Shown here: piece after piece, positions 17,660 to 38,332 of the stretch | Layout of the letters: every line of letters begins with the position of its first letter | Position numbering within the stretch: the stretch's first letter is position 1 | Virus record (IMG/VR): IMGVR_UViG_3300021185_001142 | Coordinates: 1-49,516 of that record | Reading direction: 5' to 3' (one strand) | Source of the DNA: a virus | Length of the DNA stretch: 49,516 nucleotides | Program-made: the position numbers and the translations under genes | The notes under the pieces: model-generated | What the model was told of the DNA's origin: nothing | What the model saw: the letters and a program-made list of their open reading frames with translations, nothing else | Database searches by the model: none

Positions 17660-17662
17660 GGC

Positions 17663-17691
17663 TTGACAAACAGTCTGTTTTCTTGTATTAT
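17663..17691 (+). promoter_or_regulatory. sigma70-type promoter of the 19-gene cluster
   Basis: A perfect -35 TTGACA (17663-17668), a 17-base spacer and TATTAT (17686-17691) lie just before the first gene of the long cluster. It is the only sigma70-consensus promoter I noticed on the plus strand. Two palindromes overlap it (separate entry), suggesting regulated expression. Confidence 0.78.
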
Positions 17692-17705
17692 ATAAAGAAT
17701 ACAAG
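17668..17705. promoter_or_regulatory. nested palindromes over the cluster promoter (candidate operator)
   Basis: AAACAG (17668-17673) and CTGTTT (17675-17680) form a perfect inverted repeat with a one-base centre inside the promoter spacer. CTTGTATT (17682-17689) and AATACAAG (17698-17705) form a second perfect 8-bp inverted repeat that covers the -10 and ends inside the AAGGAG ribosome-binding site. They could bind one or two repressors. The right arm of the second could also pair with other leader sequence to mask the ribosome site. Confidence 0.5.
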
Positions 17706-17715
17706 GAGTATAACC

Positions 17716-18099
17716 ATGTCAAATAAAGAAACTATTACGCCTTCAAGTGAACAACTTGAACGGCTAGAAAGAGCATTAGAGTTTTCGAACACTATGCAGA
17801 CTTTCAACCTTAATAAAAACAACTTAAAAGTTAAAACACAGAATTTATTGAACTATAGTAGTTCTGGTGGTACATTTAAAGTATCACAAGAATTGATTAA
17901 TTTTATTAATATGATTGTTGTGTCTGGAAAAGATGAAGTAATTCTCTTAGACAAAAACGACATTCCAATTAAAATTGAAGATACTAAGAAATTTTTAGAA
18001 GATATTTCTAGTTTGTATTTCGAAGTCATTAATGAATATTATAATGATTATCAGAAACTACGTAGTTCACGTAAGATTGAGAAGGTCTTGGAAATCTAA
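17716..18099 (+). CDS. conserved-looking phage protein of unknown function
   Basis: A 127-residue mostly helical protein, not recognised. The start (MSNKETI) is chosen over an in-frame ATG at 17683, which lies inside the promoter; AAGGAG sits seven bases upstream of the chosen ATG. The N-terminal part has a heptad-like LERLERALEF stretch, the middle has VSQELINFINMIVV, and the C-terminus is strongly helical and charged. There is no signal peptide or membrane segment. It is the first gene of the cluster and overlaps the next by one base (TAATG). It could be a small tail-assembly factor or a cluster regulator; nothing in the sequence decides. Confidence 0.7.
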   Translation: MSNKETITPSSEQLERLERALEFSNTMQTFNLNKNNLKVKTQNLLNYSSSGGTFKVSQELINFINMIVVSGKDEVILLDKNDIPIKIEDTKKFLEDISSLYFEVINEYYNDYQKLRSSRKIEKVLEI

Positions 18100-18968
18100 T
18101 GAGCAAAGGCATTATAATCTTTGCGACAAATAATGGTTTACTAGATTACATAAAAATTGCATGTACATGTGCAGGATATGTAAGAAAAAATCTATCGGGG
18201 TTTGACGAAATCGCCCTAGTTACAAACAATGAATCATTGTTAGATAACGAAGAACTAGTAAACAAATATTTTGATAGAACTATTATTTCCGCATCAACAC
18301 AAGATAGTAATATAAGGTTATTTAAAGATACTGCACAGCAATCGCAGTATGCACCTTTCGTTAATATGTCACGTAGTGACATATATGACCTATCACCTTA
18401 TGAAGAAAGTTTGGTAATCGATTGTGATTACTTTGTAATGAGTAGCACTCTTGACCAAGTATGGGGTAGTGAAAACGACTTCATGATTAATTGTCAATAT
18501 AGGGACGTAGCTGGTAGACATGGCGGCAACGTTTCCTATATTGATGATTTCTCTATACCTATGTATTGGGCAACAGTCTTCTACTTTAGAAAATCTGAAT
18601 ACACTGAAAACTTATTCACTTTAGTTAGTCATATAAAAGAAAACTATAAGTACTATTACTATTTGTATAATTGTTCAGGTACACTGTTTAGAAATGATTT
18701 TGCGTTCTCAATGGCTGTTCATATTTTAAATGGACAAGTAGCATGCCAAACGCCTTCATTGCCTATTGATTATCTAAACAACAGTTTTGATTTAGATGAT
18801 ATTTTTAGAGTAAACAGTGCAAATGATATTATAATGTATTGTGCCAAACCTGAAAAAACAACTGAGCATATATTGGCTAGATTTACTAACACAGATATAC
18901 ATATTATGAACAAGTCTGCGATACAACGCAATATAGATGTGTTATTGGCGCAAGGAGATACGCTATGA
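18099..18968 (+). CDS. GT-A-like glycosyltransferase
   Basis: A 289-residue cytoplasmic protein with the layout of a GT-A nucleotide-sugar transferase. The first strand is IIIFATNN, followed by a helix and a second strand FDEIALVTNN; then SLVIDCDYFVM carries the DxD metal-binding motif (Asp108-Cys-Asp110). Downstream aromatic-rich segments (YWATVFYF) are typical of acceptor-side regions in GT8/GT2-like enzymes. Its paralogue is the next gene, which it overlaps by four bases. Donor and acceptor cannot be read. It presumably transfers a sugar made or modified by products of this cluster. Confidence 0.7.
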   Translation: MSKGIIIFATNNGLLDYIKIACTCAGYVRKNLSGFDEIALVTNNESLLDNEELVNKYFDRTIISASTQDSNIRLFKDTAQQSQYAPFVNMSRSDIYDLSPYEESLVIDCDYFVMSSTLDQVWGSENDFMINCQYRDVAGRHGGNVSYIDDFSIPMYWATVFYFRKSEYTENLFTLVSHIKENYKYYYYLYNCSGTLFRNDFAFSMAVHILNGQVACQTPSLPIDYLNNSFDLDDIFRVNSANDIIMYCAKPEKTTEHILARFTNTDIHIMNKSAIQRNIDVLLAQGDTL

Positions 18969-19822
18969 GTAGAGGATATATTTGTATAGCACAGAATAGT
19001 AAGTATGATTATCTTAATCAGGCTTATGCTTTAGCGTTGTCGCTTAAAGCTACACAACAAGAGAATGCAATCTGTGTATGCGTAGATGCTTCAACAAAAA
19101 CACAAATAACTGGTAAACACAAAGAAGTGTTTGACCATATAGTAGATATCCCTTGGAACGATGATGCTGGCGCAGATGAATGGAAGATCCATAATAAATG
19201 GAAGTATCCACACATGACACCGTTCAAAGAAACTATTATTTTAGATACTGATGTGTTGTTTACACACCCAGTAGACCATTGGTGGGATCATCTATCTAAA
19301 AAAGATGTATGGGCATGTACACATGTCAAAACATTTAGAAACGAACAAGTAGTTGATGACTACTATCGTAAAAAATTTACACAATTAGGTTTACCTAATG
19401 TGTATAGCAACATGACTTATTTTAAAGAATCAGATACAACTTTTGAATTGTTTAAAATGATTGAATTGATTATGGTTCATTGGAACGTATACTATGATAA
19501 ATTTCTTAAAGGTACTGGACAAGATTGGATGAGTGCAGACTTAGCCTATGCTCTTGCTATTCGTTTATTAGATTTAGAAGAAGAAGTAATAGACAATGAT
19601 ATCAAAGATGTGCCTACGTTTACGCACATGAAAAGCTATATTCAAAACATTCCTAATAACAAGATATCAGGTGTTTGGACAGAAAGTATCCCAAGCAGTT
19701 TATCAAGTGATTTAAAAATTCGTGTAGCAAATTATGAACAGTCACTTCCTTTTCACTATGTTGAAAAGAAATGGCTTACAGAAGAAAAAATTAATATGTA
19801 TGAAAAGGCACTAGATATATGA
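18965..19822 (+). CDS. GT-A-like glycosyltransferase
   Basis: A 285-residue protein. YICIAQNSKYDYLNQAYAL at the N-terminus and ETIILDTDVLFTHP give the nucleotide-binding strand and the DxD motif (Asp94-Thr-Asp96). The AYALALSL helix after the first strand and the W-rich PVDHWWDHL segment are seen in GT8-like enzymes. It is distantly related to the preceding gene in layout, with similar length and DxD position, suggesting duplication. Starts and stops overlap by four bases on both sides, so it is translationally coupled. Substrates are unknown. Confidence 0.72.
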   Translation: MSRGYICIAQNSKYDYLNQAYALALSLKATQQENAICVCVDASTKTQITGKHKEVFDHIVDIPWNDDAGADEWKIHNKWKYPHMTPFKETIILDTDVLFTHPVDHWWDHLSKKDVWACTHVKTFRNEQVVDDYYRKKFTQLGLPNVYSNMTYFKESDTTFELFKMIELIMVHWNVYYDKFLKGTGQDWMSADLAYALAIRLLDLEEEVIDNDIKDVPTFTHMKSYIQNIPNNKISGVWTESIPSSLSSDLKIRVANYEQSLPFHYVEKKWLTEEKINMYEKALDI

Positions 19823-20406
19823 AAATATTAAGCACCGGGTTCACACATGAGACTAAAGATGCAAGAGCGGTTAACTTCAATGAGCATGGTGACATTGTTA
19901 GTATAACATCTATGAGTATAGAAGATGATGTACTAAAATGTGCTTGGTTCTCTATGGAATCTATAAAACCATTTCTTATGGGAAATTATAAGTTCTCTGA
20001 TTACAAAGTAGTCAAAACAGATGATATATTTGTTTATGAGATTATAAAATCCAAAGTAGATATCAAACAACGCAATAAAGATTCTCAACTGTACAAATTG
20101 AATAATGAGAAGTATTGTGAAATATCTGTAACATGGGACGGAACCGAATTATGTTTTACTCCTAGCAAAGAATTAGTGAAGAATGCAAACGTTGACGAAC
20201 ATCAAAATGTCACGTTGGCAGGAAAAACTCATCACCCATTTTTCATAACATATGAAAATAGACCAGATTTTATTATACAAACTATCTCTATTCCGTTCGC
20301 AAAACTATTGAGTTCTGAGACTAGAGTTAAATTCGAATATAATAAATACAATATAAGTTTATATACCCAGAAATATCTGGAAACATATTCATTCAGGAGA
20401 ACATGA
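19819..20406 (+). CDS. hypothetical protein between glycosyltransferases
   Basis: A 195-residue protein that I do not recognise. It has no signal peptide and no membrane helix. The sequence is beta-rich with many charged residues (for example KYCEISVTWDGTELCFTPS and HHPFFITYENRPDFIIQT), which suggests a beta-sandwich. ATGA overlaps tie it to the glycosyltransferase genes on both sides, so a role as accessory subunit or carbohydrate-binding partner is possible, but this is only context. Confidence 0.65.
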   Translation: MKILSTGFTHETKDARAVNFNEHGDIVSITSMSIEDDVLKCAWFSMESIKPFLMGNYKFSDYKVVKTDDIFVYEIIKSKVDIKQRNKDSQLYKLNNEKYCEISVTWDGTELCFTPSKELVKNANVDEHQNVTLAGKTHHPFFITYENRPDFIIQTISIPFAKLLSSETRVKFEYNKYNISLYTQKYLETYSFRRT

Positions 20407-21383
20407 TGAGCAAACTAGAAATCGGCGAGTTAGATGTATTCTATCTAAGTTACGATGAGCCTAATAAAGAAGAACATTGGGCAGATATTATAAGTAAATT
20501 TCCATTTGCAAAGCGAGTAGACGGCGTAAAAGGATTCGACAATGCACATAAAGAATGTGCAAGACAAAGTGATACAGAAAGATTTATTACTATTGATGGT
20601 GATAATATCGTAGATGAAAAATTCTTTGATATGGAATTAACATTTCCAGAAGATACTGATTTGGCAAACTCTGTTATCTCATGGTCAGCGAAGAACGTTG
20701 TTAACGGTCTAGTATACGGCAATGGTGGTATCAAATGCTGGCCAGTACAGCTTGTATTAGATATGAAAACCCATGAAAATGCAGTAGATGAAACAAAGAA
20801 AGTAGATTTTTGTTGGGACTTAAATTATATTCAGATGAATAACATTTATTCTACAGTACATAATGCAGGGTCTCCATTTCAAGCCTTTCGTGCAGGTTAC
20901 CGTGAAGGTTCTAAAATGTCACTTGATGAGGGAAAGAAAGTACCAGTAGAAGACTTTAAGAAGCGTATCTGGCCTAAGAACTATGAACGTCTAATTACAT
21001 GGATGAATATTGGTGCAAATGTAGAGAACGGACTATGGGCATGTTATGGTGCAAGACTAGGATGTTACGATACAAATCTTAACCCTGATTTTGTTTTAGA
21101 AAATATTTCTAGTTATGATTGGTTTAAAGAGTACTTTGATAATACTGTATTCCCTAAGTTTGAAGGCGGAGATATGAAATGCGAAAAGACAAAATTAGAA
21201 TGGGACTATGAAAAATTATTTGATGAATGCTTAGTAATAGGTGATATTCTAGTAGATAAAATTGGTATGGAACTTTGTGATCCAACACCAGAAGTAGCCT
21301 CATTTTTCAAACGAGTATATACTAATCCACCAAGAGTAATGAATCCATTAGCAACAGAAAAACAAACTGGCTGGGACAAATAA
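20403..21383 (+). CDS. GT-A-like glycosyltransferase (GT2-like)
   Basis: A 326-residue protein. VFYLSYDEPNKEEHWADII gives the first Rossmann strand and the Asp that binds the nucleotide base. RFITIDGDNIVDEKFFD carries the DxD motif (Asp65-Gly-Asp67) followed by the acidic run common in GT2-like enzymes. A later WSAKN...VYGNGGIKCWP segment resembles the acceptor/base region, with the GNGG loop. AGGAG precedes the double ATG; either Met may start. The gap to the first radical SAM gene is six bases. Donor and acceptor are unknown. Confidence 0.7.
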   Translation: MMSKLEIGELDVFYLSYDEPNKEEHWADIISKFPFAKRVDGVKGFDNAHKECARQSDTERFITIDGDNIVDEKFFDMELTFPEDTDLANSVISWSAKNVVNGLVYGNGGIKCWPVQLVLDMKTHENAVDETKKVDFCWDLNYIQMNNIYSTVHNAGSPFQAFRAGYREGSKMSLDEGKKVPVEDFKKRIWPKNYERLITWMNIGANVENGLWACYGARLGCYDTNLNPDFVLENISSYDWFKEYFDNTVFPKFEGGDMKCEKTKLEWDYEKLFDECLVIGDILVDKIGMELCDPTPEVASFFKRVYTNPPRVMNPLATEKQTGWDK

Positions 21384-21389
21384 TATATA

Positions 21390-22958
21390 ATGTCAAATTA
21401 TGATGATGATGCACAGATAACGAAAGAAAAATTAAATTCTCTTTCACCGTCTATGTGTATGGCTAAGTGGTTGCAAGTTAGTTTGCATCTGCCCCAAGGT
21501 CGCACACACAGTTGCTATCATCCACCTACACACCCTATTCCGTTAGAAGAACTTAAGAAAGATGTTAATGCATTACACAACACTACATTCAAATTAGAAG
21601 AAAGAAAGCAAATGAAATGCGGCACCCGTCCTGAAGGTTGTCAGTATTGCTGGAATGTAGAAGATGCACCTGACGCCCCACAAGGCGGAAGACTTAGTGA
21701 CAGACATTATCGTTCAAGTGAGTGGTGGGTTAAAGATGCATGGGACGAAGTCGTAAACAATGACTTTGACCACAACATTACTCCTAGATATGTTGAGGTG
21801 AACTTTAATCAGGCTTGTAATTTCAAGTGTAGTTATTGTTCGCCTCATCTAAGTACAGCATGGGAAGATGATATCAAAGAACATGGCGGCTTTCGTTTTT
21901 CAAATGGAACTGGTCATAATGATATCGATTACCTGCGTAAAACAGGTCTCATGCCATTAGAAGTAGCACGTAAGGACAATCCTTATATTGAAGCATTTTG
22001 GGAATGGTTTCCACAGATATACAGAGATTTGAAAGTATTTCGTATGACAGGCGGAGAGCCTCTTATGGATAATAATACATTCAAAGTATTTGACTATGTT
22101 AATGAAAACCCTAATCCTTTTCTTGACCTAAGTATTACATCGAATATGTGTCCACCAAGTCCTAAGTTGATGGATAAGTTTATTGAAAAAATACAAGCAT
22201 TAGAAAAAATTCGTGTATGGGAAGACCCAGAACGTTTTAATCCTGATAGTGGCAATCACTGGTATGTTGCACCAGCATGTAAACACTTTAGTTTATATGT
22301 GAGCGTAGATGGTGTAGGACCTCAAGCAGAATATATGCGTGACGGATTAGACTTTGATACACTATATCAAAATTGTCGTAGAGTCTTAAGTGAAACAGAT
22401 GGAACAGAAATTTCATTCATCAATACATTTCAATTATTGAGCATCCCAAATTTACGTGGGTTTTTGCAAATGATATTAGATTTACGTGAAGAATTTGGAT
22501 ATGAGAACCAAGAAGATAAAATTATTCAACCACCAGACCATGATGGGTTTAAGCACCCAGAGTTTGTACGTAAAAAACGCCAGCGTGTATGGTTTGACAT
22601 TCCCTATCTGCGTTATCCTGATTGGATGACTATTCAATTAGCAGACCAAGAAATGCTGGATGTAATTCAATCTAACATTGACTTTATGAAAGAAAATGTA
22701 CTACCGAATGATTTATATGGTCGCAAGTATACAGGCTTTAAGAACTATGAAGTATTAAAACTTGAACGAGATTTAGCATGGGCCAAAGAAGGACTAAATA
22801 TGAGTGATGATGAATTAAGTAATAACTTAATTCGTTTTTATGAATACTTTACAGAGTATGACAGACGTAGAGGATTAAACTTTTTAGAAACCTTTCCAGA
22901 AATGACAGCGTTTTGGAATGAAGCAAAAGAAGAAGCCGAGGAAAAATATGGGTCGTAA
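21390..22958 (+). CDS. radical SAM protein with N-terminal twitch-type Cys region (1 of 7)
   Basis: A 522-residue protein. The radical SAM cluster motif CxxxCxxC is Cys143, Cys147, Cys150 (CNFKCSYC), and MTGGEPLM supplies the GGE-type SAM-binding motif. Four further cysteines lie before it (Cys23, Cys42, Cys84, Cys87), spaced as in proteins with an N-terminal twitch domain that binds an auxiliary iron-sulfur cluster. The enzyme should cleave SAM to a 5'-deoxyadenosyl radical; the substrate is unknown. HNTTFKLEERKQMKCG is shared in pattern with the three sister proteins at 22948, 26400 and 28796. It overlaps the next gene by 11 bases. Confidence 0.85.
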   Translation: MSNYDDDAQITKEKLNSLSPSMCMAKWLQVSLHLPQGRTHSCYHPPTHPIPLEELKKDVNALHNTTFKLEERKQMKCGTRPEGCQYCWNVEDAPDAPQGGRLSDRHYRSSEWWVKDAWDEVVNNDFDHNITPRYVEVNFNQACNFKCSYCSPHLSTAWEDDIKEHGGFRFSNGTGHNDIDYLRKTGLMPLEVARKDNPYIEAFWEWFPQIYRDLKVFRMTGGEPLMDNNTFKVFDYVNENPNPFLDLSITSNMCPPSPKLMDKFIEKIQALEKIRVWEDPERFNPDSGNHWYVAPACKHFSLYVSVDGVGPQAEYMRDGLDFDTLYQNCRRVLSETDGTEISFINTFQLLSIPNLRGFLQMILDLREEFGYENQEDKIIQPPDHDGFKHPEFVRKKRQRVWFDIPYLRYPDWMTIQLADQEMLDVIQSNIDFMKENVLPNDLYGRKYTGFKNYEVLKLERDLAWAKEGLNMSDDELSNNLIRFYEYFTEYDRRRGLNFLETFPEMTAFWNEAKEEAEEKYGS

Positions 22959-24495
22959 ACATTGGGAGGGAGAAACCCTTCATCAATACAAAGAGCGTAT
23001 GATTGATAGCAAGAGCGAAAGCTACTGTGCTTCTAAATGGTATAACGCTACTATCTGGTTAGGACATGGGCAGACTGCAAGTTGTCATCACCCACCAGGG
23101 CATTGGATCCCACTTGAAGAAATTAAAGATAATCCTTCAGCAATTCATAATACAAAGCATAAGAAACTTATGCGTAAACATATGCAAGAAGGCAAAAGAC
23201 CTGCTGAATGTGAATACTGTTGGAAAGTTGAAGACATGGGCAAGGATCATATATCTGACCGTGTATTCAAAACTGAAATCTTTAAAGACGAAGATATTGA
23301 CAAGAGTATGGAAATGCCATGGGATGATAACGTAAACTTGCGTACACTTGAAATCTCATTTGATAGAGCGTGTAATCTAAAATGTTCATATTGTAATCCT
23401 GCTTTCAGTACCGCATGGGTTAAAGATATCAATACATATGGTGGATATCAAAATATACAATCTGATGGCAGAGGACACTTTGTTGATACTGCACCTTGGG
23501 CGGCTCCCAAGACAAAGAAAGAAGAAGACAACCCATACATACAAGCATTTCATAAATGGTGGGAGAGTGACTTAGCAGATTGTTTAGAAGAAATTCGTAT
23601 CACTGGTGGTGAACCCATCATGCATAGAGGTACATGGAAATTGTTTGATTGGTTTGAACAGAATCCAGATAGAGGACGTAATATGCGTTTTGCTATCAAC
23701 TCTAACTTGTCTCCGGAGAAACCAAAAGTATTAGACAGATTAATTGAAAAGTCTTGGCATGTCCCCAACTTTGAGATATACACTTCAATGGAAGCAACCA
23801 AAGACCAAGCAGAATATATACGTGATGGATTAGATTATGACTTATGGAAGAATAATATACATCGTGTATTAAAAGAATCAAACGTAGCAAAACTACATAT
23901 GATGATGACTATTAATTCACTGTGTCTTGTTACTATCACAAATTTTATGGATGAAATGTTAGACCTACGTGAAGAATATGGACAACGTGCTCCTACTATG
24001 ACGCTAAACATTTTGCGTTTCCCTTCTTTTCAAAGTGCGGCAATACTTCCTGAGGATGTAAAGACATTTTATAAAGACAAACTAGAAGCATGGTTCAACA
24101 CAGAAAGACCACAAGAAAAATTATCAGAAGGTGAAAAAGCAAGTATACAAAGATTGATTGACTATCTTGATATTGTTAAAACACCACATAAGAATACAGC
24201 AGAAACTCCGAAGCTATATAATGATTTTAAAGCATTCTTTTCTCAGTTTGATGTGCGAAGAGGACATAATTTCAGGGAAACATTCAAAGGACCTATTGCA
24301 GATTGGTACGAAACTTTAGAAGCAGAAGCACCAAGTAGAGAACAGATTTTGAATAAAGAATTAGTATTTAAAAATAGCGACAGAGCAGGTGACCCAGCCA
24401 CTACAAAAGACTATGAAGGAGGTGACGATGCTCACGAAAAAGTTGGTGGTTGGGACACTGAAAATGATGCACTAGGAGGAGTCAAAGTTGAATGA
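22948..24495 (+). CDS. radical SAM protein with N-terminal twitch-type Cys region (2 of 7)
   Basis: A 515-residue close paralogue of the preceding gene. The start at 22948 (MGRKHWEGE) is chosen because GAGG precedes it; an upstream in-frame ATG would lengthen the overlap. Auxiliary-cluster cysteines are Cys27, Cys46, Cys88 and Cys91; the radical SAM motif is Cys142, Cys146, Cys149 (CNLKCSYC); TGGEPIM follows. HHPPGHWIPLEEI mirrors HPPTHPIPLEEL of its neighbour, and both share a C-terminal region ending in a GHNFRETF/GLNFLETF-like motif. Side-by-side copies this similar indicate tandem duplication followed by specialisation. The 40-residue C-terminal tail is acidic and low-complexity. Confidence 0.85.
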   Translation: MGRKHWEGETLHQYKERMIDSKSESYCASKWYNATIWLGHGQTASCHHPPGHWIPLEEIKDNPSAIHNTKHKKLMRKHMQEGKRPAECEYCWKVEDMGKDHISDRVFKTEIFKDEDIDKSMEMPWDDNVNLRTLEISFDRACNLKCSYCNPAFSTAWVKDINTYGGYQNIQSDGRGHFVDTAPWAAPKTKKEEDNPYIQAFHKWWESDLADCLEEIRITGGEPIMHRGTWKLFDWFEQNPDRGRNMRFAINSNLSPEKPKVLDRLIEKSWHVPNFEIYTSMEATKDQAEYIRDGLDYDLWKNNIHRVLKESNVAKLHMMMTINSLCLVTITNFMDEMLDLREEYGQRAPTMTLNILRFPSFQSAAILPEDVKTFYKDKLEAWFNTERPQEKLSEGEKASIQRLIDYLDIVKTPHKNTAETPKLYNDFKAFFSQFDVRRGHNFRETFKGPIADWYETLEAEAPSREQILNKELVFKNSDRAGDPATTKDYEGGDDAHEKVGGWDTENDALGGVKVE

Positions 24496-27794: not shown

Positions 27795-27795
27795 C

Positions 27796-28767: not shown

Positions 28768-28795
28768 CAAATATTAAACAATTAGGATAGATATT

Positions 28796-31179: not shown

Positions 31180-32401
31180 GCATGATGAAATACTTCATTT
31201 AGATTTTGAAAGTAGTAGCCTGTGCAATGCTCTCTGTCCTGTATGCAACCGCAGAGAACAGGGTGGGAAAAAGAACCCAAGATACAAAGAGACTTATATT
31301 TCATTAGAACAATTTAAGAAGTATTTTAGTGTAAAATTCTTAACACAGTTATATGGCATGTCTTTGTGTGGTAACTACGGTGACGCTATGACTAATCCAG
31401 AACTAATTGATATTCTAAAGTATACAAAATCTATAAATCCTAATATTAGAATTACAATGAATTCAAATGCTAGTGGTCGTAACGCAACCTTCTGGTACGA
31501 ATTAGGACAGATAATCGGAACTAATGGACACATGACATTTAGTGTTGATGGACTTGAGGATACAAATTGGATATATCGTAGAGGAACTCATTGGAATAAA
31601 ATTATGACTGCTATGGAAAACTATATCGCTGGTGGTGGCCATGCTAGATGGGAATTCTTAGTATTCAAACATAATCAGCATCAAATAGAAGAGGCAAAGA
31701 TATTAGCAAAAAAAATAGGCATACAAGATTTCTTTTCAAAGAAAGCATTGGGATTTGTTGACAGTGTGGTCGAAGGAAATGCACAATCATCTTTGGCAGT
31801 ATTTAATGAAAGCGGAACAAAGGACTATGAATTGCATCCTCCATCTGATGGTAACTCTAATGAAATCATTAATAAATATATTAAACAATCATCATTTAAA
31901 CGAATCGACGGCGAAGACACAGACAGTCCAGAAAAGATTTTACAAACAATTCGATTTGCTAAAACAAACCCATCGGGTGAGTATACACACAAATATGAAT
32001 TAGATGAAAACAGACCACTAACTGAACACGAAAAGAAGTTAGGAAATACAAGAATAGATTGTATGGTTATCAAGCCTAAAAGTATTTTCGTGTCTAGTGA
32101 AGGATTAGTTTTCCCATGTTGTATGACTGCTAGTAAACTATATGCATTCCCAGATGAGGAAACTGTGCAGTTACAAAAATTTATAGATGACTTTGGTAAG
32201 GAAAGAATAAGTTTAGAACATACTAAACTAGAAGACATAATTAATGGTCCAATGTTTCAAACGCACTGGCCTGATAATTGGAAAGATAATAATATCAATA
32301 ATAAAAGATTGAGAACGTGTTCAATCTTTTGTGGTAAAGATACTAATCAAGAATTCAATGCAACCATGAAAAGTATTAAGAAGAAAGAAAGCTATGCATA
32401 G
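31172..32401 (+). CDS. radical SAM protein with C-terminal SPASM/twitch-like region (7 of 7)
   Basis: A 409-residue third member of the SPASM-like trio. CNALCPVC is Cys18, Cys22, Cys25. The start (MYKHDE) is supported by GGAG upstream and by the shared N-terminal length. CGNYGDAMTNPEL, DGLEDTNWIYRRGTHW and FLVFKHNQHQIEEA are conserved; C-terminal cysteines are in IDC, FPCC and CSIFCG. It is closer to the 25228 copy than to its direct neighbour in several motifs (RREQGGKKNP against RREQGGEKNP), so the copies may not have arisen by simple adjacent duplication. Confidence 0.84.
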   Translation: MYKHDEILHLDFESSSLCNALCPVCNRREQGGKKNPRYKETYISLEQFKKYFSVKFLTQLYGMSLCGNYGDAMTNPELIDILKYTKSINPNIRITMNSNASGRNATFWYELGQIIGTNGHMTFSVDGLEDTNWIYRRGTHWNKIMTAMENYIAGGGHARWEFLVFKHNQHQIEEAKILAKKIGIQDFFSKKALGFVDSVVEGNAQSSLAVFNESGTKDYELHPPSDGNSNEIINKYIKQSSFKRIDGEDTDSPEKILQTIRFAKTNPSGEYTHKYELDENRPLTEHEKKLGNTRIDCMVIKPKSIFVSSEGLVFPCCMTASKLYAFPDEETVQLQKFIDDFGKERISLEHTKLEDIINGPMFQTHWPDNWKDNNINNKRLRTCSIFCGKDTNQEFNATMKSIKKKESYA

Positions 32402-35036
32402 AATGTTTTACAATAAGTGGACAACTGTCCGTTCTGATAGAATTCAACAGATACACACAGAGCCACAACACTATGACCTATATCAAAACTTTGTTGATGA
32501 GTTACACCCTGACGTAAGATTTGAAAAGTATTATTTTATTTCTCCATGGATTGCATGTATGTGGGCAGAGGAGCATGGCAACTATCTTACGCACACAGAT
32601 AATCTAATTGAAGATGTTATCAAAGACAAATCTATAACGAAAGATTTAGAAGATGGGATTGCTTGTATTGTATTTGATATGGGTGCAGAATTTATACCAC
32701 TGGACTATTATTATAAAATAGATAAATTTTATTCTAATAAAAAGAATCACAAAAATGTTAAGTATTGGACTATGTTTGAAAACTCTGCAAAGCTAATAAA
32801 AGATGGCACAGTTCAATGTATTACAGTTTCCACAAGTACTTTGAGGTTTGCTGATTATGAAAAGGGAAAAATAAAAACAGATACATCACATTATAAAGAT
32901 ATATCAAAGAAACATTTACTGTTTCTTAATAAAAGAATTAGACCTCATCGTCTTGATGTCCTTGCCAAGTTTATTGAGAAAGATTGCAACTTGCATAAAA
33001 ATTCCTACTTTAGTTTACTAGGTGAAGAATTTGATGGAGATAAAAATAATCCGTTATATCTAGGAGACGTTGCGGCTATCAAAAATTGTAATAGTACAAA
33101 AGACATACATGAAGAAATAGTTAATAGATATTTAGGTAATAAATTACCATATAGTATAGAAACCGGAAGAGACGATTGGTTATCAGGATCGAACCTTAAT
33201 AGAATAGAAGAACTAGAAATATACAGAAGAAGGACATATGTAGAAGTAATTACAGAGTTTACTGCTAGTGATGAGTTTGTTTCATTAAGTGAAAAAATTT
33301 CACAGGCGATAATATCGCACCAGCCATTTATTATAGTAGGAGATAAAGGATATCTTGCACAACTAAAAAATCTTGGGTTCAAAACATTTGATACTTTTTG
33401 GGACGAGAAATATGATGAGTTGCCTTACAATGAACGAATAGAAGAAATCTCAAATGTAGTTAAAGGCATTGTTGACAATGTACAGATAATTCGCGGTAAG
33501 ACAGAGTTTACATATTCTAAGAAAATGCAAGAGGTGTTAGATTTTAATTATCATCATTATAAAAATCAATATGCTCCTAGAGTATACAACGATGCATTTC
33601 AAAGTATTAGTGTAGGAGATTATGTTCCGCAAATACAAATTGATCCAACAGATGCACACGGACGAAATGTGTTTGATGATGACTCACGTATGAGAGGATA
33701 TGTTTGGTATAATGAAAATACTAATACACTAATTCAACCAATATCAGGATGCTTAGAAAATGAGATAGAAGAAATCATTGCACCTAATTTGGGATATAGA
33801 TTGCGTAGAAGGGATGAGTTGCCAGATATCTCTAATATTCCAGCAATTATATTTACCAGAAGACCTGACAAGAGACTATCTGCATATTTGAAAAAAACAG
33901 GTAAGAAACTAGAAGAAGTCAAATTACTATCACAATCTGCATATCATTATGAATTAAATTGCAAATGTGTAATTGATATAGATAATATGAGTGGTACTGG
34001 TAATTATAAAAGAACATTAGATTGGATTGAAGATTTTGGACAGCGTGATATTGCCAGACGCATTTGCGAGTTGTTAGAGACAGTTGAAGTAAAGACTCCT
34101 GCTAAGTTGACTAAAAAGCAAATGAAATATTGCGATGAGAATTACGAATGGGATTGGCATATGTATAATGAGTGGGGTTCTTGGCGTTTTAGAAAACCAC
34201 ACAATATATCCAGAATTGGGGTTGAATTCGGAAAGTACATTGATACTTTTACTGATGTATATAAAAAAGAATTCAAAAAGATAACAAAAAATTCTGTATC
34301 TCATAGAGAGTATTTCAAAGGCTCGTTAGTTCCGGGTTATTGGGCTAACCATTCTATGATACTTGATAACATCGGACTTAACTATGCACCAAAAGATATT
34401 AAGATACTTGATGTGGGCACTCACTTTGGTTTTATGCCACACTTTCTAAAAAGCCAAGGTTATACCAATGTACATTCGACCAATTCATATAAAGAAGCAG
34501 GTGATTCGATAGATGAACTTAAAGAGATTTGGAAGACGTTGGATATTAAACCTCCAGCAGATGTACACATTTATCCATGTAGAGACTTTGATTTGTTGAA
34601 TAATATTAATAATTGTTACGGAAAAGACTTTAATCCTAACGAGAAATATGATATAATATTAATTAACATGTCAAATATATTTTGGAAAACTGATAAAATA
34701 ATTAGACTACATGATGGAAATCTGTCACAGTCTTGGGAAATACGTGATAAGAACGATAGCCCAAATACTTTCTTTGCACCGTATGAAAGCCACGATATCA
34801 TGTCATTTATAGAATGCATTAAGAAATTCCTTAACATGGGAGGCATAGCAGTAGTTCAACCTTACCCATGGGCTTACACAGATTTCGAAGGCTTTGTGGA
34901 AGAAAAGAATTTACTGATGCATTGGCAAAATCCTCATAGAGGACATGAGGCACCAAAGTCAACTGCACATTCTCCCAACGCATCTGTTAATGATTATTTT
35001 ATTGTACAAAAGGAGATAACAGATGGACGAGATTAA
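32394..35036 (+). CDS. glycosyltransferase-like / SAM-methyltransferase fusion
   Basis: An 880-residue multidomain protein. Residues about 170-350 (HLLFLNKRIRPHRLDVLAKF, later RRRTYVEVITEFTASDEF and IVGDKGYLAQLKNLGFKTF) follow the pattern of GT-B, fucosyltransferase-like enzymes found in marine phages and bacteria. Residues about 640-870 are a class I methyltransferase: motif I ILDVGTHFGFMPHFL near 670, an acidic YDIILINMSNIF strand, and GGIAVVQPYPW. The middle (about 420-630) is unassigned; FTRRPDKRLSAYL there loosely recalls a sulfotransferase phosphate-binding motif, but this is weak. A single chain could both attach and methylate a sugar. It overlaps both neighbours. Confidence 0.6.
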   Translation: MHRMFYNKWTTVRSDRIQQIHTEPQHYDLYQNFVDELHPDVRFEKYYFISPWIACMWAEEHGNYLTHTDNLIEDVIKDKSITKDLEDGIACIVFDMGAEFIPLDYYYKIDKFYSNKKNHKNVKYWTMFENSAKLIKDGTVQCITVSTSTLRFADYEKGKIKTDTSHYKDISKKHLLFLNKRIRPHRLDVLAKFIEKDCNLHKNSYFSLLGEEFDGDKNNPLYLGDVAAIKNCNSTKDIHEEIVNRYLGNKLPYSIETGRDDWLSGSNLNRIEELEIYRRRTYVEVITEFTASDEFVSLSEKISQAIISHQPFIIVGDKGYLAQLKNLGFKTFDTFWDEKYDELPYNERIEEISNVVKGIVDNVQIIRGKTEFTYSKKMQEVLDFNYHHYKNQYAPRVYNDAFQSISVGDYVPQIQIDPTDAHGRNVFDDDSRMRGYVWYNENTNTLIQPISGCLENEIEEIIAPNLGYRLRRRDELPDISNIPAIIFTRRPDKRLSAYLKKTGKKLEEVKLLSQSAYHYELNCKCVIDIDNMSGTGNYKRTLDWIEDFGQRDIARRICELLETVEVKTPAKLTKKQMKYCDENYEWDWHMYNEWGSWRFRKPHNISRIGVEFGKYIDTFTDVYKKEFKKITKNSVSHREYFKGSLVPGYWANHSMILDNIGLNYAPKDIKILDVGTHFGFMPHFLKSQGYTNVHSTNSYKEAGDSIDELKEIWKTLDIKPPADVHIYPCRDFDLLNNINNCYGKDFNPNEKYDIILINMSNIFWKTDKIIRLHDGNLSQSWEIRDKNDSPNTFFAPYESHDIMSFIECIKKFLNMGGIAVVQPYPWAYTDFEGFVEEKNLLMHWQNPHRGHEAPKSTAHSPNASVNDYFIVQKEITDGRD

Positions 35037-35409
35037 AGAAGAAATAACAAATCAATTTGAGCATAGCCAGATGACCAAGGCAGGAAAACTTGCTATGGAA
35101 CTAGGTGCAGAAAAGAAAAGATTAAAAAAAGAATTAGCAGAACTACAGACAGAAGTAGAAGACTTAACTCCTACTACGCCAGTCGGAACAGTTGACTGGT
35201 ATATCAAATGGGCGGCCATGGCATTGGCAGTGTCTGGTGTATTTCTAATGAGTGCGGGACTAATATTTTGGGGACAAGTTGCATATATTATTAGTAGCAT
35301 AGGATGGGTAGCAGTAGGTATGGCATGGGGAGATAGAGCGATTATGATAGGTAGTGCTATCACTGGTACCGCAGTTATGATGAATTTCGTGCAGGGATAT
35401 ATAGTATGA
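35023..35409 (+). CDS. small membrane protein (DUF6552-like)
   Basis: A 128-residue protein with a charged, coiled-coil-prone N-terminus (about 1-45) and three hydrophobic helices (roughly 60-80, 84-104, 107-125). WYIKWAAMAL followed by GWVAVGMAWGDRAIMIGSA is a pattern shared by small membrane proteins of marine T4-like phages that I associate with DUF6552. Function is unknown. AAGGAG lies eight bases before the ATG. It is the only clearly membrane-embedded product of the cluster, so it might anchor or export the modified product at the inner membrane (inference). Confidence 0.7.
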   Translation: MDEIKEEITNQFEHSQMTKAGKLAMELGAEKKRLKKELAELQTEVEDLTPTTPVGTVDWYIKWAAMALAVSGVFLMSAGLIFWGQVAYIISSIGWVAVGMAWGDRAIMIGSAITGTAVMMNFVQGYIV

Positions 35410-36296
35410 AATATTATATAGCAGGAGACAGAGGACTTGTCGGTACTTGGTATAAGAAACTTATAACTGATGCAGATGGAGGTAACACCCAGACTGCAAA
35501 TTATAGTTCACGCATATCTACTAAACAAGATATACAAATGCGAAAGCCCACACACGTAATTATAAATGCGGCTACTGTTGGTGGCCTGCAAGAAGACTTA
35601 GACAAGAGTTTTGAATTAATGATTAAGAACTTAACAATTCAAAATAACTTATTTGAAGCATGTCGTTTCGCAAGAACAGACAGAGTACTACTACAAGGAA
35701 GCACATGTAGTTATCCAGAGATTGGCGAACAACCCTATAATGAAACTCAGTTACTACAAGGCGAACCTTTCGCTACATACTTTCCTACTGCATTACCTAA
35801 ACTCATGGGTATGTATCAATGTAGAGCAAGTAATGAAAAGTACAATACTAATTGGCGTACAGCAATAAACACAAATATGTTCGGACCGCATGATAGGACA
35901 GGAGAACATGCACACGTAATAGGTGCGTTGATGCAAAAGTTTGTAGACGCATGTAAAAGCAATGCAGACAGTATTGAGATATGGGGTTCTGGAAATCAAA
36001 GTAGAGATATACTTTACATTGAAGACGCAGTTGCGGCCATGGATATAATATTAAATAATGACAAGTATGATACAGTCAACGTAGCAAGTGGCTATGAAAT
36101 TTCTATCAGAGAAATAGCTGAACTATTAATTAAAGTCAGTGGTTACAAAGGTAATCTTTGGTTCAATACGGATAGACCTGAAGGAATTAAGAATAGAGCG
36201 ATAGATAATTCTCGCTTAAAGGAATTAGGTTGGAAGCCAGAGTATAGTATGGAAGAAGCATTTGCTAAAACATACAAGTGGTATTATGACTTATAA
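35406..36296 (+). CDS. GDP-L-fucose synthase-like NAD(P)-dependent epimerase/reductase
   Basis: A 296-residue short-chain dehydrogenase of the Fcl/WcaG type. GDRGLVG (7-13) is the nucleotide-binding loop, GSTCSYP (98-104) keeps the catalytic Ser and Cys, and NMFGPHD plus HVIGAL keep the substrate-side segments. Fcl converts GDP-4-keto-6-deoxymannose to GDP-L-fucose by epimerisation and reduction. The catalytic Tyr of the YxxxK pair is replaced: the segment reads TALPK, so Thr128 stands where Tyr136 of E. coli Fcl would be, with Lys132 retained. A Tyr lies three residues earlier (YFPT). The activity may be altered. No Gmd-type dehydratase is encoded in the window. Confidence 0.8.
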   Translation: MKYYIAGDRGLVGTWYKKLITDADGGNTQTANYSSRISTKQDIQMRKPTHVIINAATVGGLQEDLDKSFELMIKNLTIQNNLFEACRFARTDRVLLQGSTCSYPEIGEQPYNETQLLQGEPFATYFPTALPKLMGMYQCRASNEKYNTNWRTAINTNMFGPHDRTGEHAHVIGALMQKFVDACKSNADSIEIWGSGNQSRDILYIEDAVAAMDIILNNDKYDTVNVASGYEISIREIAELLIKVSGYKGNLWFNTDRPEGIKNRAIDNSRLKELGWKPEYSMEEAFAKTYKWYYDL

Positions 36297-37275
36297 TTAT
36301 CAGTCTCAAACAAAAACAGATATACCAATACAAAGTTTTGATAATGATTTTGTTTATACTGGTCCTAGTTGGGCTGTACAAAGTTATTCATCTCCATTAG
36401 GAGATAAAAGTGATGAGCCAAACATAAACATAGGTGATATGTTTGCAAAAGAATTTAAACATAGTCTAGGAACACACAACCATGCATGGTTGCCTAGACA
36501 TGGCAACAGTAATACAAAATGTGTACTAGAAATAAAAAAATGGCAAAAGAGAAAAGAGTATGGAGTTGAACCATTCAGTGGACCAGTAATATGGGTCTTG
36601 TGCGATCCGTTAGCTAGATTATATTTTGATCCTGAGACAGGCCAACAGACATGGCCATTATATAAGAAAGAAACAATACTTTATAAATCAATCACGTATA
36701 ATAAATTTATTGAAAACTTACTTTGCAGTAATGATTGGCTATCGTACAGACATCAACTATTACATATGGATTTAAAAGAAATGAATGAATTAAACATGCC
36801 TATAGGAATTATAGGATCTCATTCAGATATTACATATGTAGATGTTGAACCATATGAAAATCTTACAGTCATAGAACCTAGTTGGCAAAATGTATTATGT
36901 GAACATGCAGGCATTAAAGGCATGTCTCCTAATCTAGGCGCAGACTTTGTACATCAAACAATAAAAGCATACGCAAGTGAAGACGAAATTCATGCCTATA
37001 TAGAAAAACATAATATAGATAAATACAGATGGGCACTGAATGAAAAGGTTGGAAAACTCATGGCAATGTTAATGTCACAAGTTTTTGACCCTAAGATAAC
37101 GAAATTTGTTCATCCCAATGTTGTAGACTATGTACACGGTCAATATGATTGTTGGAAACAATTAGAAGAAAAACAATTATTTAACTGGGTACACCCAAGT
37201 ATTGAGGGCAATTTAGTTTTCTATGAGCATGTAAAATATAAGATGGAGAAATTTGTAAATGCTAACAAAAAATAG
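36286..37275 (+). CDS. SGNH-hydrolase-like protein
   Basis: A 329-residue protein. VYTGPSWAVQSYS near the N-terminus resembles block I of SGNH/GDSL hydrolases (Ser in a G-x-S context). PVIWVLCDPLARL resembles the strand before the block III Asn, and WVHPSIEGNLVF near the C-terminus resembles block V (His with a following GN). Such enzymes hydrolyse esters, often removing or moving O-acetyl groups on glycans. Support is weaker than for the two SGNH-like genes at 45927 and 47155. The start at 36286 (MTYNYQ) overlaps the previous stop. Confidence 0.5.
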   Translation: MTYNYQSQTKTDIPIQSFDNDFVYTGPSWAVQSYSSPLGDKSDEPNINIGDMFAKEFKHSLGTHNHAWLPRHGNSNTKCVLEIKKWQKRKEYGVEPFSGPVIWVLCDPLARLYFDPETGQQTWPLYKKETILYKSITYNKFIENLLCSNDWLSYRHQLLHMDLKEMNELNMPIGIIGSHSDITYVDVEPYENLTVIEPSWQNVLCEHAGIKGMSPNLGADFVHQTIKAYASEDEIHAYIEKHNIDKYRWALNEKVGKLMAMLMSQVFDPKITKFVHPNVVDYVHGQYDCWKQLEEKQLFNWVHPSIEGNLVFYEHVKYKMEKFVNANKK

Positions 37276-38332
37276 TCATATGAACCCAGTGTATGGGAAA
37301 GAAGAAATAGAAAGCGTATACGACTATGTTAACTCTGGTGGTTGGATTATGGAACATACCAAAACTAGAGAGTTAGAATCTCTTATATGTGACTATACTG
37401 GCGCCAAGTATGCACACATGGTAACAAGTGCTACTACAGGTCTCCTGTGTGCTTCTATGATAGCTAAAATACAGCCAGGAGAAAAGTTTGCCGTAAGTGC
37501 GTATACACAAGCGGCTACATGTAACGGCGCAATACTAATGGGAGGCATACCAGTGATAGTTGATGTTGACCCATTTAGCTACTGTATAAACTTCGATAAG
37601 ATACCATCTGATTGTAGAGTTATATTTGTATCAGCAATCAATGGAAGATACCCAAAAGATGTTCAAGAACAAATCAAATCTTTAAGAGAAAGTGGTAGAG
37701 TCGTAATTGAAGACTCTGCACAAGCACTAGGTAGTAGAACAGTAAACGATATACACTGTGGTACTATGGGTGACATGGGCGTATTCAGTTTTGGAGCACC
37801 AAAGATTATTACTACAGGACAAGGTGGTTGCATCATTACTAATGATAAAGGTATTAGTGATGAGATTGTAGCAATCAAAAACTTTGGCAGAACGGTCAAG
37901 GTTGGAGAAGTATATAATGTCATGGGTTCTAATTTTAAGTTTACAGATTTACAAGCATCTTTCGGTGTACCACAGATGAAGAAACTGCCATTTATTGTCG
38001 AGCATAAGAAACATTTATTTAAGTGGTATTGTAAACATCTAAAAGGTGTGGTAGATTTTATTAATACTGATTTAGAATTTGTAACGCCAACGTATCCTGA
38101 AATATTAGTAAGCAAACGTGATGAACTTGTATTAGAATTACGAGAAGAAGGCATAGGATGCCGTGCAGTATATGATAGTCTATGTAATCAACCCTTCCAT
38201 AAACAATGGAAAACCCCTACACCAATTGCAGACGAATTAGCAAGTAGAGGCCTACATTTACCAGGTCAGTTTGATTTACGTGAAGAAGACGTAAAGAAGA
38301 TTGCAAGTGTTATTAAAAATCACGCGGCGTGA
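37259..38332 (+). CDS. DegT/DnrJ/EryC1/StrS-type sugar aminotransferase
   Basis: A 357-residue PLP-dependent enzyme that aminates nucleotide-linked keto-sugars. The PLP Lys is Lys182 in FSFGAPKIITTGQGG; EDSAQALGS (151-159) supplies the Asp that binds the pyridine nitrogen; SATTGL (57-62) contacts the phosphate. Length fits the family. It is the last gene of the plus-strand cluster and overlaps the previous one by 17 bases; MNPVYG (start 37280) is an alternative start. Its 3' end overlaps that of the converging epimerase gene inside a hairpin. It implies that a 3- or 4-amino sugar is made. Confidence 0.93.
   Translation: MLTKNSHMNPVYGKEEIESVYDYVNSGGWIMEHTKTRELESLICDYTGAKYAHMVTSATTGLLCASMIAKIQPGEKFAVSAYTQAATCNGAILMGGIPVIVDVDPFSYCINFDKIPSDCRVIFVSAINGRYPKDVQEQIKSLRESGRVVIEDSAQALGSRTVNDIHCGTMGDMGVFSFGAPKIITTGQGGCIITNDKGISDEIVAIKNFGRTVKVGEVYNVMGSNFKFTDLQASFGVPQMKKLPFIVEHKKHLFKWYCKHLKGVVDFINTDLEFVTPTYPEILVSKRDELVLELREEGIGCRAVYDSLCNQPFHKQWKTPTPIADELASRGLHLPGQFDLREEDVKKIASVIKNHAA

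What the first reader, a model, noticed from the sequence alone, without database searches (positions are those of the whole stretch)
17663..38332. Phage cluster with seven radical SAM genes among glycan enzymes
Nineteen genes with overlaps or gaps under 30 bases encode seven radical SAM proteins (21390, 22948, 25228, 26400, 28796, 29983, 31172), all with intact CxxxCxxC motifs, plus GT-A-like transferases, a sulfotransferase, a Fcl-like reductase, a sugar aminotransferase, an SGNH-like protein and a GT/methyltransferase fusion. Phages commonly carry a few sugar genes; this density of radical SAM enzymes is unusual. I infer a dedicated pathway that makes a highly modified glycan or glycopeptide, perhaps on tail proteins (encoded just upstream) or on the host surface. 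No classic RiPP precursor is visible.
Basis: partly seen in the sequence, partly recalled or inferred. Interest (0 to 1): 0.85.

Follow-up and report, generated by a model that had tools for sequence, protein, structure and literature searches.

The report
Tail-linked radical-enzyme cassette in uncultured phages
A block of seven radical-chemistry enzymes in a large uncultured phage contains a strongly conserved gene cassette that follows a tail gene in many environmental phages, was not found in the public phage records searched, and probably reshapes a surface sugar or the phage's own tail.

Summary
In detail: 19 tightly packed genes, seven with radical SAM (rSAM) profiles and intact CNxxCxxC. 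It is more than one odd cluster. Four rSAMs are N-terminal-twitch enzymes (NF033640). Three of these (21390, 22948, 26400), a tail protein (16709), a small protein and three glycosyltransferase-like proteins form a fixed-order cassette: 72 of 72 testable loci, 26 after dereplication at 80% identity. Tblastn found no match for 21390, 20403 or 18965 in 50,697 public phage records. Sugar-nucleotide genes are a variable fringe. Relatives of the core rSAMs occur without these transferases in Bdellovibrionota. Tail genes often carry ATAAATA (T4-late-like) motifs, whereas the cassette often starts with its own sigma70-type promoter. Core genes show low dN/dS. Best reading: a recognition module pairing a receptor-contacting tail protein with early-expressed enzymes that remodel a cell-surface glycan or its precursor; modification of the tail itself is the main rival. 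Substrate and chemistry are unproven. Multi-rSAM phage modules are already known (CP220, pelagimyophages, a TARA genome).

The parts
6136..14976 (+). giant virion structural protein (context)
   Evidence: phrog_10938 E 7.6e-179; homolog EST35_0128 in Pseudomonas phage PA5oct, 1551 bits, marked ESI-MS/MS in that record
14998..15004 (+). ATAAATA, T4-late-promoter-like motif before tail gene 15030
   Evidence: motif upstream of 67 of 97 15030 homologs, shuffled 6.9
15030..15701 (+). tail structural protein (phrog_11259)
   Evidence: PA5oct homolog EST35_0126, ESI-MS/MS
16709..17659 (+). distal tail or baseplate protein that starts the module; conserved N-terminus, FFNxGG motif
   Evidence: (PA5oct EST35_0123, ESI-MS/MS)
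17663..17691 (+). sigma70-type promoter TTGACA-N17-TATTAT before the cassette
   Evidence: 11 of 12 consensus matches, the best of 31 promoter-like sites in 14900-21500, a number no higher than in shuffles (31.8); at least 10 of 12 upstream of 96 of 188 17716 homologs versus 9 of 194 for 16709
17716..18099 (+). small conserved protein 17716, no family
   Evidence: present in order in 72 of 72 loci; no Pfam match of meaning
18099..18968 (+). putative glycosyltransferase 1, invariant D108xD110
   Evidence: no PDB profile match; Pfam only DUF1996 under cut-off; no fold test run
18965..19822 (+). putative glycosyltransferase 2, weakly glycogenin-like
   Evidence: profile against PDB: glycogenin E 0.024 to 0.15 over residues 5-104, behind RtcB at 0.021; invariant D96
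19819..20406 (+). fast-evolving protein of unknown role, found in part of the loci
20403..21383 (+). GT-A-fold glycosyltransferase-like protein 3, invariant D65-G-D67
   Evidence: AlphaFold2 pLDDT 87.2, pTM 0.87; Z 10.3, 137 residues, 3.0 A to B4GALNT1; no Foldseek match at E 0.001 or better
21390..22958 (+). rSAM core 1 (N-twitch)
   Evidence: NF033640 294.9 bits; orthologous group in tree
22948..24495 (+). rSAM core 2 (N-twitch)
   Evidence: NF033640 310.8 bits, measured on the ORF from 22918
24492..25235 (+). putative sulfotransferase, variable (motif only)
   Evidence: invariant R11-x-G-S-T and R117 in 7 sequences; no library support
25228..26403 (+). rSAM with C-terminal SPASM (ATG start also possible at 25201), variable
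   Evidence: PF04055 44.6 bits, SPASM 21.7 bits, measured on the ORF from 25201
26400..27794 (+). rSAM core 3 (N-twitch)
   Evidence: NF033640 331.4 bits; 24-row alignment; model pLDDT 81.4
27796..28767 (+). unknown protein, found in part of the loci
28796..29983 (+). rSAM (N-twitch) 4
   Evidence: NF033640 360.7 bits; 20 viral loci at 71-100% identity
29983..31179 (+). rSAM paralog of 25228, variable; SPASM-like C-terminal cysteines seen in alignment only
   Evidence: PF04055 36.7 bits, no SPASM match listed
31172..32401 (+). rSAM with C-terminal SPASM-like region, variable; fused to 32394 homolog elsewhere
   Evidence: both profiles under cut-off; 1295-aa fusion in L014
32394..35036 (+). putative GT/methyltransferase fusion, variable
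   Evidence: motif only; natural fusion with 31172 homolog; no library support
35023..35409 (+). small membrane protein, DUF6552
   Evidence: PF20189 39 bits; only cassette protein with a membrane segment in a hydropathy scan
35406..36296 (+). GDP-fucose-synthase-like reductase, variable
   Evidence: PF01370 110.6 bits; 222 bits to NF047922, under its cut-off of 500
36286..37275 (+). SGNH-like protein (motif only), variable
   Evidence: no Pfam match
37259..38332 (+). DegT/DnrJ/EryC1 sugar aminotransferase, variable
   Evidence: PF01041 207 bits
38320..41359 (-). facing set of sugar genes: epimerase 38320, C-methyltransferase 39793, cupin 40976 (FdtA-like under cut-off); variable
   Evidence: found together with 35406 and 37259 in several loci

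Best explanation
Shown: a conserved module of large T4-type phages joins a distal tail protein (16709) to an operon of one small protein, three glycosyltransferase-like proteins and several N-twitch radical SAM enzymes, in many loci with its own sigma70-type promoter; sugar-nucleotide, C-methyl and putative sulfate genes are exchangeable additions. Inferred: the module pairs receptor recognition with receptor remodelling. The tail protein contacts a host surface glycan; the enzymes, made early by host RNA polymerase, work in the cytosol on that glycan's precursors. The transferases add or swap sugars and the rSAMs do C-H chemistry (epimerisation, dehydrogenation, deoxygenation or cross-linking) in steps, so that the infected cell stops binding rival or sister virions. 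Copy number and extra enzymes diversify the product. The existence of the module is near certain; host-surface glycan as the target is a moderate bet.
For: Order 16709-17716-18099-18965-20403-21390 before 22948 in 72 of 72 loci with at least 8 kb upstream, of 80 retrieved; 60, 46 and 26 remain after dereplication of the 22948-type protein at 95, 90 and 80%. Anchored on the tail gene instead: 37 of 47 eligible loci have an rSAM within 7 kb, 4 have one further on and 6 none in the sequence held. 16709 distances track the transferases (r 0.75-0.84) better than those of its structural neighbour 15030 do (r 0.47-0.65), in 51 dereplicated loci. Promoter classes: ATAAATA upstream of 15030 in 67 of 97 (shuffled 6.9) and of 16709 in 66 of 194 (11.1); sigma70 pattern upstream of 17716 in 78 of 183 (0.9), at similar distances from the start. 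dN/dS against two related phages: rSAM core and the three transferases 0.02-0.08, tail proteins 0.14-0.19. Invariant acidic motifs and a GT-A-type fold for 20403. No membrane segment except in 35023. Fusion of rSAM 31172 with 32394. Published inference of O-chain modification for the comparable pelagimyophage island.
Against: The rSAM core also occurs without these transferases in bacteria, so its substrate need not be their product. No lipid-carrier transferase, flippase or polymerase was recognised among the cassette's Pfam hits. Fixed linkage to a tail gene fits tail modification as well; 15030 lies further from the cassette than 16709, which may explain part of its weaker correlation. Sugar genes 35406 and 37259 have dN/dS as low as the core (0.05-0.07), so low dN/dS does not single out the core. 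Fold matches of 26400 are tied between peptide-acting rSAMs and small-molecule ones. Two of the three transferases rest on motifs and weak matches. Promoter classes are sequence patterns, not transcripts: more than half of the 17716 homologs lack the sigma70 pattern, two thirds of the 16709 homologs lack ATAAATA, and 39 of 209 20403 homologs have ATAAATA upstream.
Confidence: 0.4

Rival explanations
1. Virion modification: the enzymes glycosylate and radically modify the adjacent tail protein 16709 (or another fibre) before assembly, tuning receptor binding or stability.
For: Invariant adjacency and correlated divergence with 16709; all enzymes soluble in a hydropathy scan; the PA5oct homolog of 16709 is marked as MS-detected; top Foldseek hits of 26400 include peptide-modifying maturases.
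Against: Cassette and tail genes tend to carry different promoter classes; tail genes have dN/dS three to four times that of the core enzymes; PA5oct keeps the tail protein with no cassette in the 12 kb after it; no tail family of the window was found in nine bacterial loci with rSAM relatives.
Confidence: 0.3
2. The rSAM core is an independent peptide- or small-molecule-making line that happens to share the operon with the transferases.
For: Bacteriovoracaceae locus L148 holds eight N-twitch genes, related to the phage core, with no transferase of this cassette; N-twitch matches vary from 1 to 21 per phage record.
Against: Gaps of at most 28 bases leave no room for a discrete precursor gene inside the cassette; each of the 72 testable 22948 loci had the transferase-like genes.
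Confidence: 0.15
3. DNA hypermodification: transferases and rSAMs decorate a modified base in phage DNA.
For: Early-type promoter and soluble enzymes fit; rSAM enzymes in thymidine hypermodification are recalled, not looked up.
Against: No Tet/JBP match in 19 records, but the control rang nowhere, so inconclusive; thymidylate-synthase family in only 6 of 19 records; one paper search on rSAM and hypermodification returned nothing.
Confidence: 0.07
4. Chance cluster or assembly artefact.
For: At least two of 21 records (G001, G002) carry a stop inside the 26400 reading frame; the match list was cut.
Against: Same order in 72 of 72 loci from different contigs; low dN/dS; orthologous groups shared by two phage lineages and bacteria.
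Confidence: 0.01

Closest known systems
Host recognition cluster of pelagimyophages (PMC7029224, passages read)
   Same: Variable island among tail genes with glycosyltransferases; MAGV3 and MAGV16 differ by rSAM cassettes; authors infer O-chain modification and coinfection avoidance
   Different: Mosig, the Pelagibacter phage looked at, carries MoaA-like rSAMs, an aminotransferase and a carbamoyltransferase; no N-twitch rSAM or transferase of this cassette was found in the 28 kb read; no fixed cassette is described in the passages
Campylobacter phages CP220 and CPt10 (PMC2853527, passages read)
   Same: 11 and 12 rSAM proteins, five per exchangeable module; in CP220 the module follows baseplate-type genes and includes two nucleotide-diphospho-sugar-transferase-fold genes
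   Different: Only weak (38-70 bit) resemblance to the C-SPASM rSAMs; no N-twitch core, no 16709 or matching transferases in the 28.6 kb read
TARA_ERS488813_N000010, a 183 kb T4-like environmental genome (PMC5332604, section 14 read)
   Same: 12 rSAM genes plus an A-type Fe-S carrier; PF01521 found here in 5 of 21 records
   Different: Cassette order and transferases not described there; not compared by sequence
Vibrio phages K566 and K567
   Same: Nearest named phage records for the N-twitch enzymes: four intact ORFs in K566
   Different: Best profile scores 64-114 bits, to the less specific N-twitch groups and none to 21390, 22948 or 26400; no matching transferases or tail gene in the 29 kb read
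Bdellovibrionota N-twitch arrays (L145, L147, L148; L146 unclassified)
   Same: Relatives of 26400 and 28796 in all four, of 22948 in L146 and L148, of 21390 in L148
   Different: Bacterial contigs, no tail genes or matching transferases in the loci; 26400 ortholog at E 1e-80 or better in only 7 of 191 genomes of the phylum, two with a stop inside

Membership tests
Radical SAM superfamily (PF04055) | CxxxCxxC cluster motif | tested here: met
   7 of 7, invariant columns C143, N144, C147, C150
Radical SAM superfamily (PF04055) | profile score above Pfam's gathering cut-off | tested here: inconclusive
   3 of 7 above 29.5 bits; the other four at 24.9-28.1 bits, E at most 2.6e-5
N-twitch rSAM (NF033640) | score above 170 bits over the model | tested here: met
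   21390, 22948, 26400 and 28796; the other three (30-52 bits) are not members by this test
N-twitch rSAM (NF033640) | auxiliary Fe-S cluster actually bound | not testable with these tools
   conserved N-terminal cysteines seen; binding not shown
GT-A glycosyltransferases | GT-A fold with DxD-type motif (20403) | tested here: met
   model Z 10.3 and invariant DGD; nucleotidyltransferases score closely (Z 9.2-9.6) and no Foldseek match reaches E 0.001, so the activity is inferred
GT-A glycosyltransferases | same for 18099 and 18965 | tested here: inconclusive
   invariant acidic residues; glycogenin at E 0.024 for 18965, with RtcB as good (0.021)
Pelagimyophage host recognition cluster | island between VrlC and gp14 of a pelagimyophage | tested here: inconclusive
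   the baseplate protein 1797 is nearest to jumbo phages such as CBB, GAP32, Munch and SCTP-2; VrlC and gp14 not searched
RiPP biosynthetic cluster | discrete precursor peptide gene beside the rSAM | tested here: not met
   no gap over 28 bases within the cassette; a precursor elsewhere is not excluded
Tet/JBP-type DNA hypermodification | Tet/JBP dioxygenase in the genome | tested here: inconclusive
   0 of 19 records, but the control did not ring
T4-type phages | gp23-family capsid | tested here: met
   14 of 17 related records of 103-354 kb; not tested on the 49.5 kb window itself

The most novel reading that the evidence does not exclude
A dedicated assembly line of four to five N-twitch radical SAM enzymes and three transferases chemically rebuilds the phage's own receptor-binding tail protein (16709), giving virions with radical-made residues or sugars; Bacteriovoracaceae, which also attack Gram-negative cells (recalled), use a related enzyme set on their own surface or adhesin. 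Nothing here excludes it.
Probability: 0.25. Interest if true: 0.92.

Novelty: new variant of a known kind. Interest (0 to 1): 0.72.

Why it matters
rSAM-rich phages were known as curiosities. Here an rSAM cassette has a fixed order and a fixed tail partner in every one of 72 testable environmental contigs, drawn from a capped scan with 599 related stretches, while key genes have no match in 50,697 public phage records. It suggests a widespread, uncharacterised radical chemistry linked to phage-host recognition, and makes a vague question (why do environmental phages carry rSAM genes?) testable by timing, glycan analysis and virion mass spectrometry. Among named phages K566 offers only a distant model.

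Tried and rejected
Sugar-nucleotide genes as the core of the pathway: rejected, because they are absent from loci that keep the rSAM core.

Late co-expression with tail genes: not supported by promoter motifs. The exact T4 late octamer TATAAATA has no match in the window against 8.9 expected; the shorter ATAAATA gave the signal. Shuffles in these scripts were mononucleotide shuffles, start codons are those of the longest ORFs, and related sequences were only dereplicated by exact identity of a 40-base stretch or of the whole stretch, so the counts are not independent events.

Bacterial gene neighbourhood as a clue to function: ten neighbour proteins from L148, L149 and the phage-like L150 gave no useful Pfam match; seven short loci from one phylum showed no common partner beyond 28796-type genes in four of them and one similar secreted-looking protein in two.

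Assigning chemistry by fold: 26400 matches SuiB, MoaA, a sactipeptide enzyme (CteB, name recalled), SkfB and BlsE within 0.3 Z units, so nothing was chosen. A PDB sequence profile of the N-twitch enzymes found nothing. No PDB support for the sulfotransferase or the fusion protein.

Fe-S assembly genes as a constant companion: PF01521 in only 5 of 21 records. Tet/JBP: the control did not ring.

Matches in named phages that do exist: 28796 matched 40 of 50,697 records, all under 60% identity, the best (K566) 24% over 86% of the protein; 25228 matched 4; 16709 matched 11 Pseudomonas phages; 32394 none.

The tail and 20403 anchors used alignments taken from cassette loci, so they lean towards such loci. 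Of the 80 tail-anchored loci 33 were too short to judge, and of the 80 20403-anchored loci 12; duplicates were kept in these counts. The 20 viral records were chosen because they carry 28796 homologs; the 15 were chosen for size.

Full report
WHAT WAS CHECKED. The window is a 49,516-base virus record with no tRNA. The 19 + strand ORFs from 17716 to 38332 are real; 15 of 18 junctions overlap and the largest gap is 28 bases. All seven rSAM candidates match PF04055 by hmmscan with E from 2.3e-11 to 2.6e-5 and share CNxxCxxC; a six-frame search found five of the seven. They fall in two kinds. 21390, 22948, 26400 and 28796 pass NF033640 (N-terminal twitch) at 295 to 361 bits, cut-off 170. 25228, 29983 and 31172 are paralogs with SPASM-like cysteines at the C-terminus; SPASM itself is above cut-off in 25228, below it in 31172 and not listed for 29983. 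The Fcl-like and DegT genes are confirmed. The sulfotransferase, SGNH and GT/methyltransferase labels have no library support.

WHAT KIND OF PHAGE. The baseplate protein 1797 is nearest to jumbo myoviruses such as CBB, GAP32, Munch and SCTP-2, at 32-38% identity over 54-65% of its length in the rows shown. Records with a related cassette reach 342 and 354 kb, and 14 of 17 records tested carry a T4-type gp23 capsid gene. The giant protein 6136, 15030 and 16709 have homologs in Pseudomonas phage PA5oct in the same order, marked ESI-MS/MS in that record. 16709 is therefore very likely a virion tail or baseplate component. The host is unknown.

A CONSERVED CASSETTE. Twenty viral loci carry a 28796 homolog at 71-100% identity. 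All 21 records searched (the window and these 20) have N-twitch genes over the cut-off, 5 to 21 matches each. L010, L011, L013, L015 and L016 keep 21390, 22948, 26400 and 28796 but show no 35406 or 37259 homolog in the stretch held. A genome-contig scan found two further settings: phage-like contigs inside metagenome bins (L153-L156) with 16709, 18099, 18965, 20403, 21390 and 22948 in order (17716 detected only in L155 by that search; L150 is similar but lacks 22948), and bacterial N-twitch arrays. Of the best 80 loci, 72 had at least 8 kb upstream and all 72 hold 16709, 17716, 18099, 18965, 20403 and 21390 in that order; all 65 with at least 5.5 kb downstream hold a 26400 and a 28796-type gene, while 38320-like and 37259-like sugar genes appear in 31 and 26. 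Near copies are included: the 72 shrink to 60, 46 and 26 when the 22948-type protein is dereplicated at 95, 90 and 80%. Against 50,697 phage records tblastn found no match for 21390 and 20403 (E 1e-5) or 18965 (E 1e-3), and two weak Vibrio phage matches for the L153 enzyme. 28796, of the broader N-twitch family, matched 40 records at low identity.

ANCHORED ON OTHER GENES. Anchoring on the tail gene (best 80 of at least 558 relatives), 47 loci were testable: 37 have an rSAM within 7 kb, 31 of the 21390/22948 type; 8 have transferase-like genes but no rSAM within 7 kb; 2 have neither. Of these last ten, 4 have an rSAM further on and 6 none in the sequence held. Anchoring on 20403 (best 80 of at least 580), 56 of 68 have an rSAM within 3.5 kb and 48 are of the core type; 1 of the other 12 has one further on. 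So tail gene plus transferase-like genes looks like the backbone and the rSAM set a frequent addition. Records searched whole carry from 1 to 21 N-twitch matches.

SELECTION AND CO-INHERITANCE. Between the window and two related phages (loci of G009 and G003), dN/dS is 0.02-0.08 for rSAM core genes and the three transferases, 0.14-0.19 for 15030, 15768 and 16709, and 0.15-0.24 for the putative sulfotransferase; the sugar genes 35406 and 37259 are also low (0.05-0.07), and 31172 is 0.20. A third, more distant comparison (L012) gives higher values with saturated dS. In a 142-row tree the groups 21390, 22948 and 26400 each hold a clade of the window's lineage, a clade of the other phages, and rows from Bdellovibrionota or an unclassified bacterium (quick method, several long branches and long-branch warnings, so single long rows and the finer 28796-type groups are unsure). 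16709 distances follow the transferases (r 0.75-0.84) and 21390 (0.67) as much as or more than its neighbour 15030 (0.65); 15030 follows the cassette less (0.47-0.65) (51 loci), in part perhaps because it lies further away. In G009 the homologs of 31172 and 32394 form one 1,295-residue protein, which suggests a shared substrate.

TWO PROMOTER CLASSES. In 90 bases upstream, ATAAATA occurs before 67 of 97 15030 homologs (shuffled 6.9) and 66 of 194 16709 homologs (11.1), but before 10 of 183 17716 (7.8), and before 1 of 195, 0 of 195, 1 of 163, 1 of 126 and 2 of 114 for 18099, 18965, 21390, 22948 and 26400; 20403 is an exception with 39 of 209 (12.8). The pattern TTGAC-N17..19-TAWNNT occurs before 78 of 183 17716 homologs (shuffled 0.9), 12 of 209 for 20403, and at most 4 for each other family. 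Median distances from motif to start codon are 19, 47 and 24 bases for 15030, 16709 and 17716. In the window these are ATAAATA at 14998 (another lies at 20342, before 20403) and TTGACA-17-TATTAT at 17663-17691. By analogy with T4 (recalled), tail genes would be late and the cassette early. This is sequence evidence only.

STRUCTURE. The 20403 model (23 sequences, pLDDT 87.2, pTM 0.87) has a GT-A-type domain over residues 3-176, best Z 10.3 with 137 residues at 3.0 A to B4GALNT1; Foldseek alone gave nothing at E 0.001 or better and nucleotidyltransferases score almost as well, but the invariant DGD and the context favour a transferase. The 26400 model (24 sequences, pLDDT 81.4, pTM 0.84) is a radical SAM fold tied between SuiB (Z 12.4), MoaA (12.3), a sactipeptide enzyme and SkfB (12.2) and BlsE (12.1), so fold does not tell peptide from small-molecule substrate. 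All cassette proteins except 35023 lack a membrane segment in a hydropathy scan.

BACTERIAL RELATIVES. Nine bacterial loci (L145-L149, L151, L152, L169, L171) hold 2 to 10 N-twitch genes and no profile match to the tail, 17716 or transferase families of the window. L148 (Bacteriovoracaceae) has eight, including relatives of 21390, 22948, 26400 and 28796, near what look by eye like housekeeping genes; one ORF some 6 kb away looks by eye like an unrelated glycosyltransferase. A 26400 ortholog is in 7 of 191 genomes of that phylum (E 1e-80 or better), two with a stop inside. This shows that the rSAM core can exist apart from tail and transferases; its role there is unknown.

INTERPRETATION. The facts support a recognition-linked modification module. 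I favour early remodelling of a host surface glycan or its precursor: separate sigma70-type promoter, soluble transferase-like proteins, exchangeable sugar genes, and the published inference for pelagimyophages. Tail modification is the main rival because linkage and co-divergence with 16709 fit it equally. The reaction of any rSAM here is unknown.

PRECEDENT. CP220 and CPt10 carry 11 and 12 rSAM proteins with an exchangeable module of five (PMC2853527, passages); a related phage also has rSAM genes (PMC3322345, passages). Pelagimyophage islands differ by rSAM cassettes (PMC7029224, passages). A 183 kb T4-like TARA genome has 12 rSAM genes (PMC5332604, section 14). A Baltic survey reports 261 instances of 'ahbD' and calls inferences on it speculative; only three of its contigs held both rSAM domains (PMC9301287, passages), so that these are relatives of the present enzymes is a guess. 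Eight paper searches did not list a description of this fixed tail-transferase-rSAM cassette; only their listings and the passages named were seen, and the library is limited to open-licence PMC papers.

Noticed in passing
41450-43207 (-): FG-GAP repeat protein with a peptidoglycan-binding domain and, by eye, a signal-like N-terminus; TTGACAAA lies upstream in 3 of 4 homologs read. Possibly a phage-made surface lectin.
   Followed up: partly
43271-44125 (-): Fusion of a cytidylyltransferase-like domain and a mannose-6-phosphate-isomerase-type cupin.
   Followed up: no
44100-44483 (-): S-adenosylmethionine decarboxylase (PF02675, 55.8 bits) in a phage that also carries many SAM-using enzymes.
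   Followed up: no
45457-45855 (-): Peptidyl-tRNA hydrolase 2 family protein (PF01981, 31.9 bits).
   Followed up: no
L302: A 26400 ortholog with a stop inside lies between ORFs that look by eye like glmU and glmS, a weak hint at amino-sugar metabolism.
   Followed up: no
L149 and L171: Bdellovibrionia loci with ten N-twitch rSAM genes each; in L149 they are interleaved with 410-460 aa proteins of no known family.
   Followed up: partly
window, whole: The exact T4 late octamer TATAAATA is absent (0 against 8.9 expected), while ATAAATA, mostly with another first base, sits before tail genes of the group, suggesting a shifted late-promoter consensus.
   Followed up: partly
G001, G002, G120, G192: Some 26400 copies carry one stop inside; assembly error or decay not resolved.
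   Followed up: no
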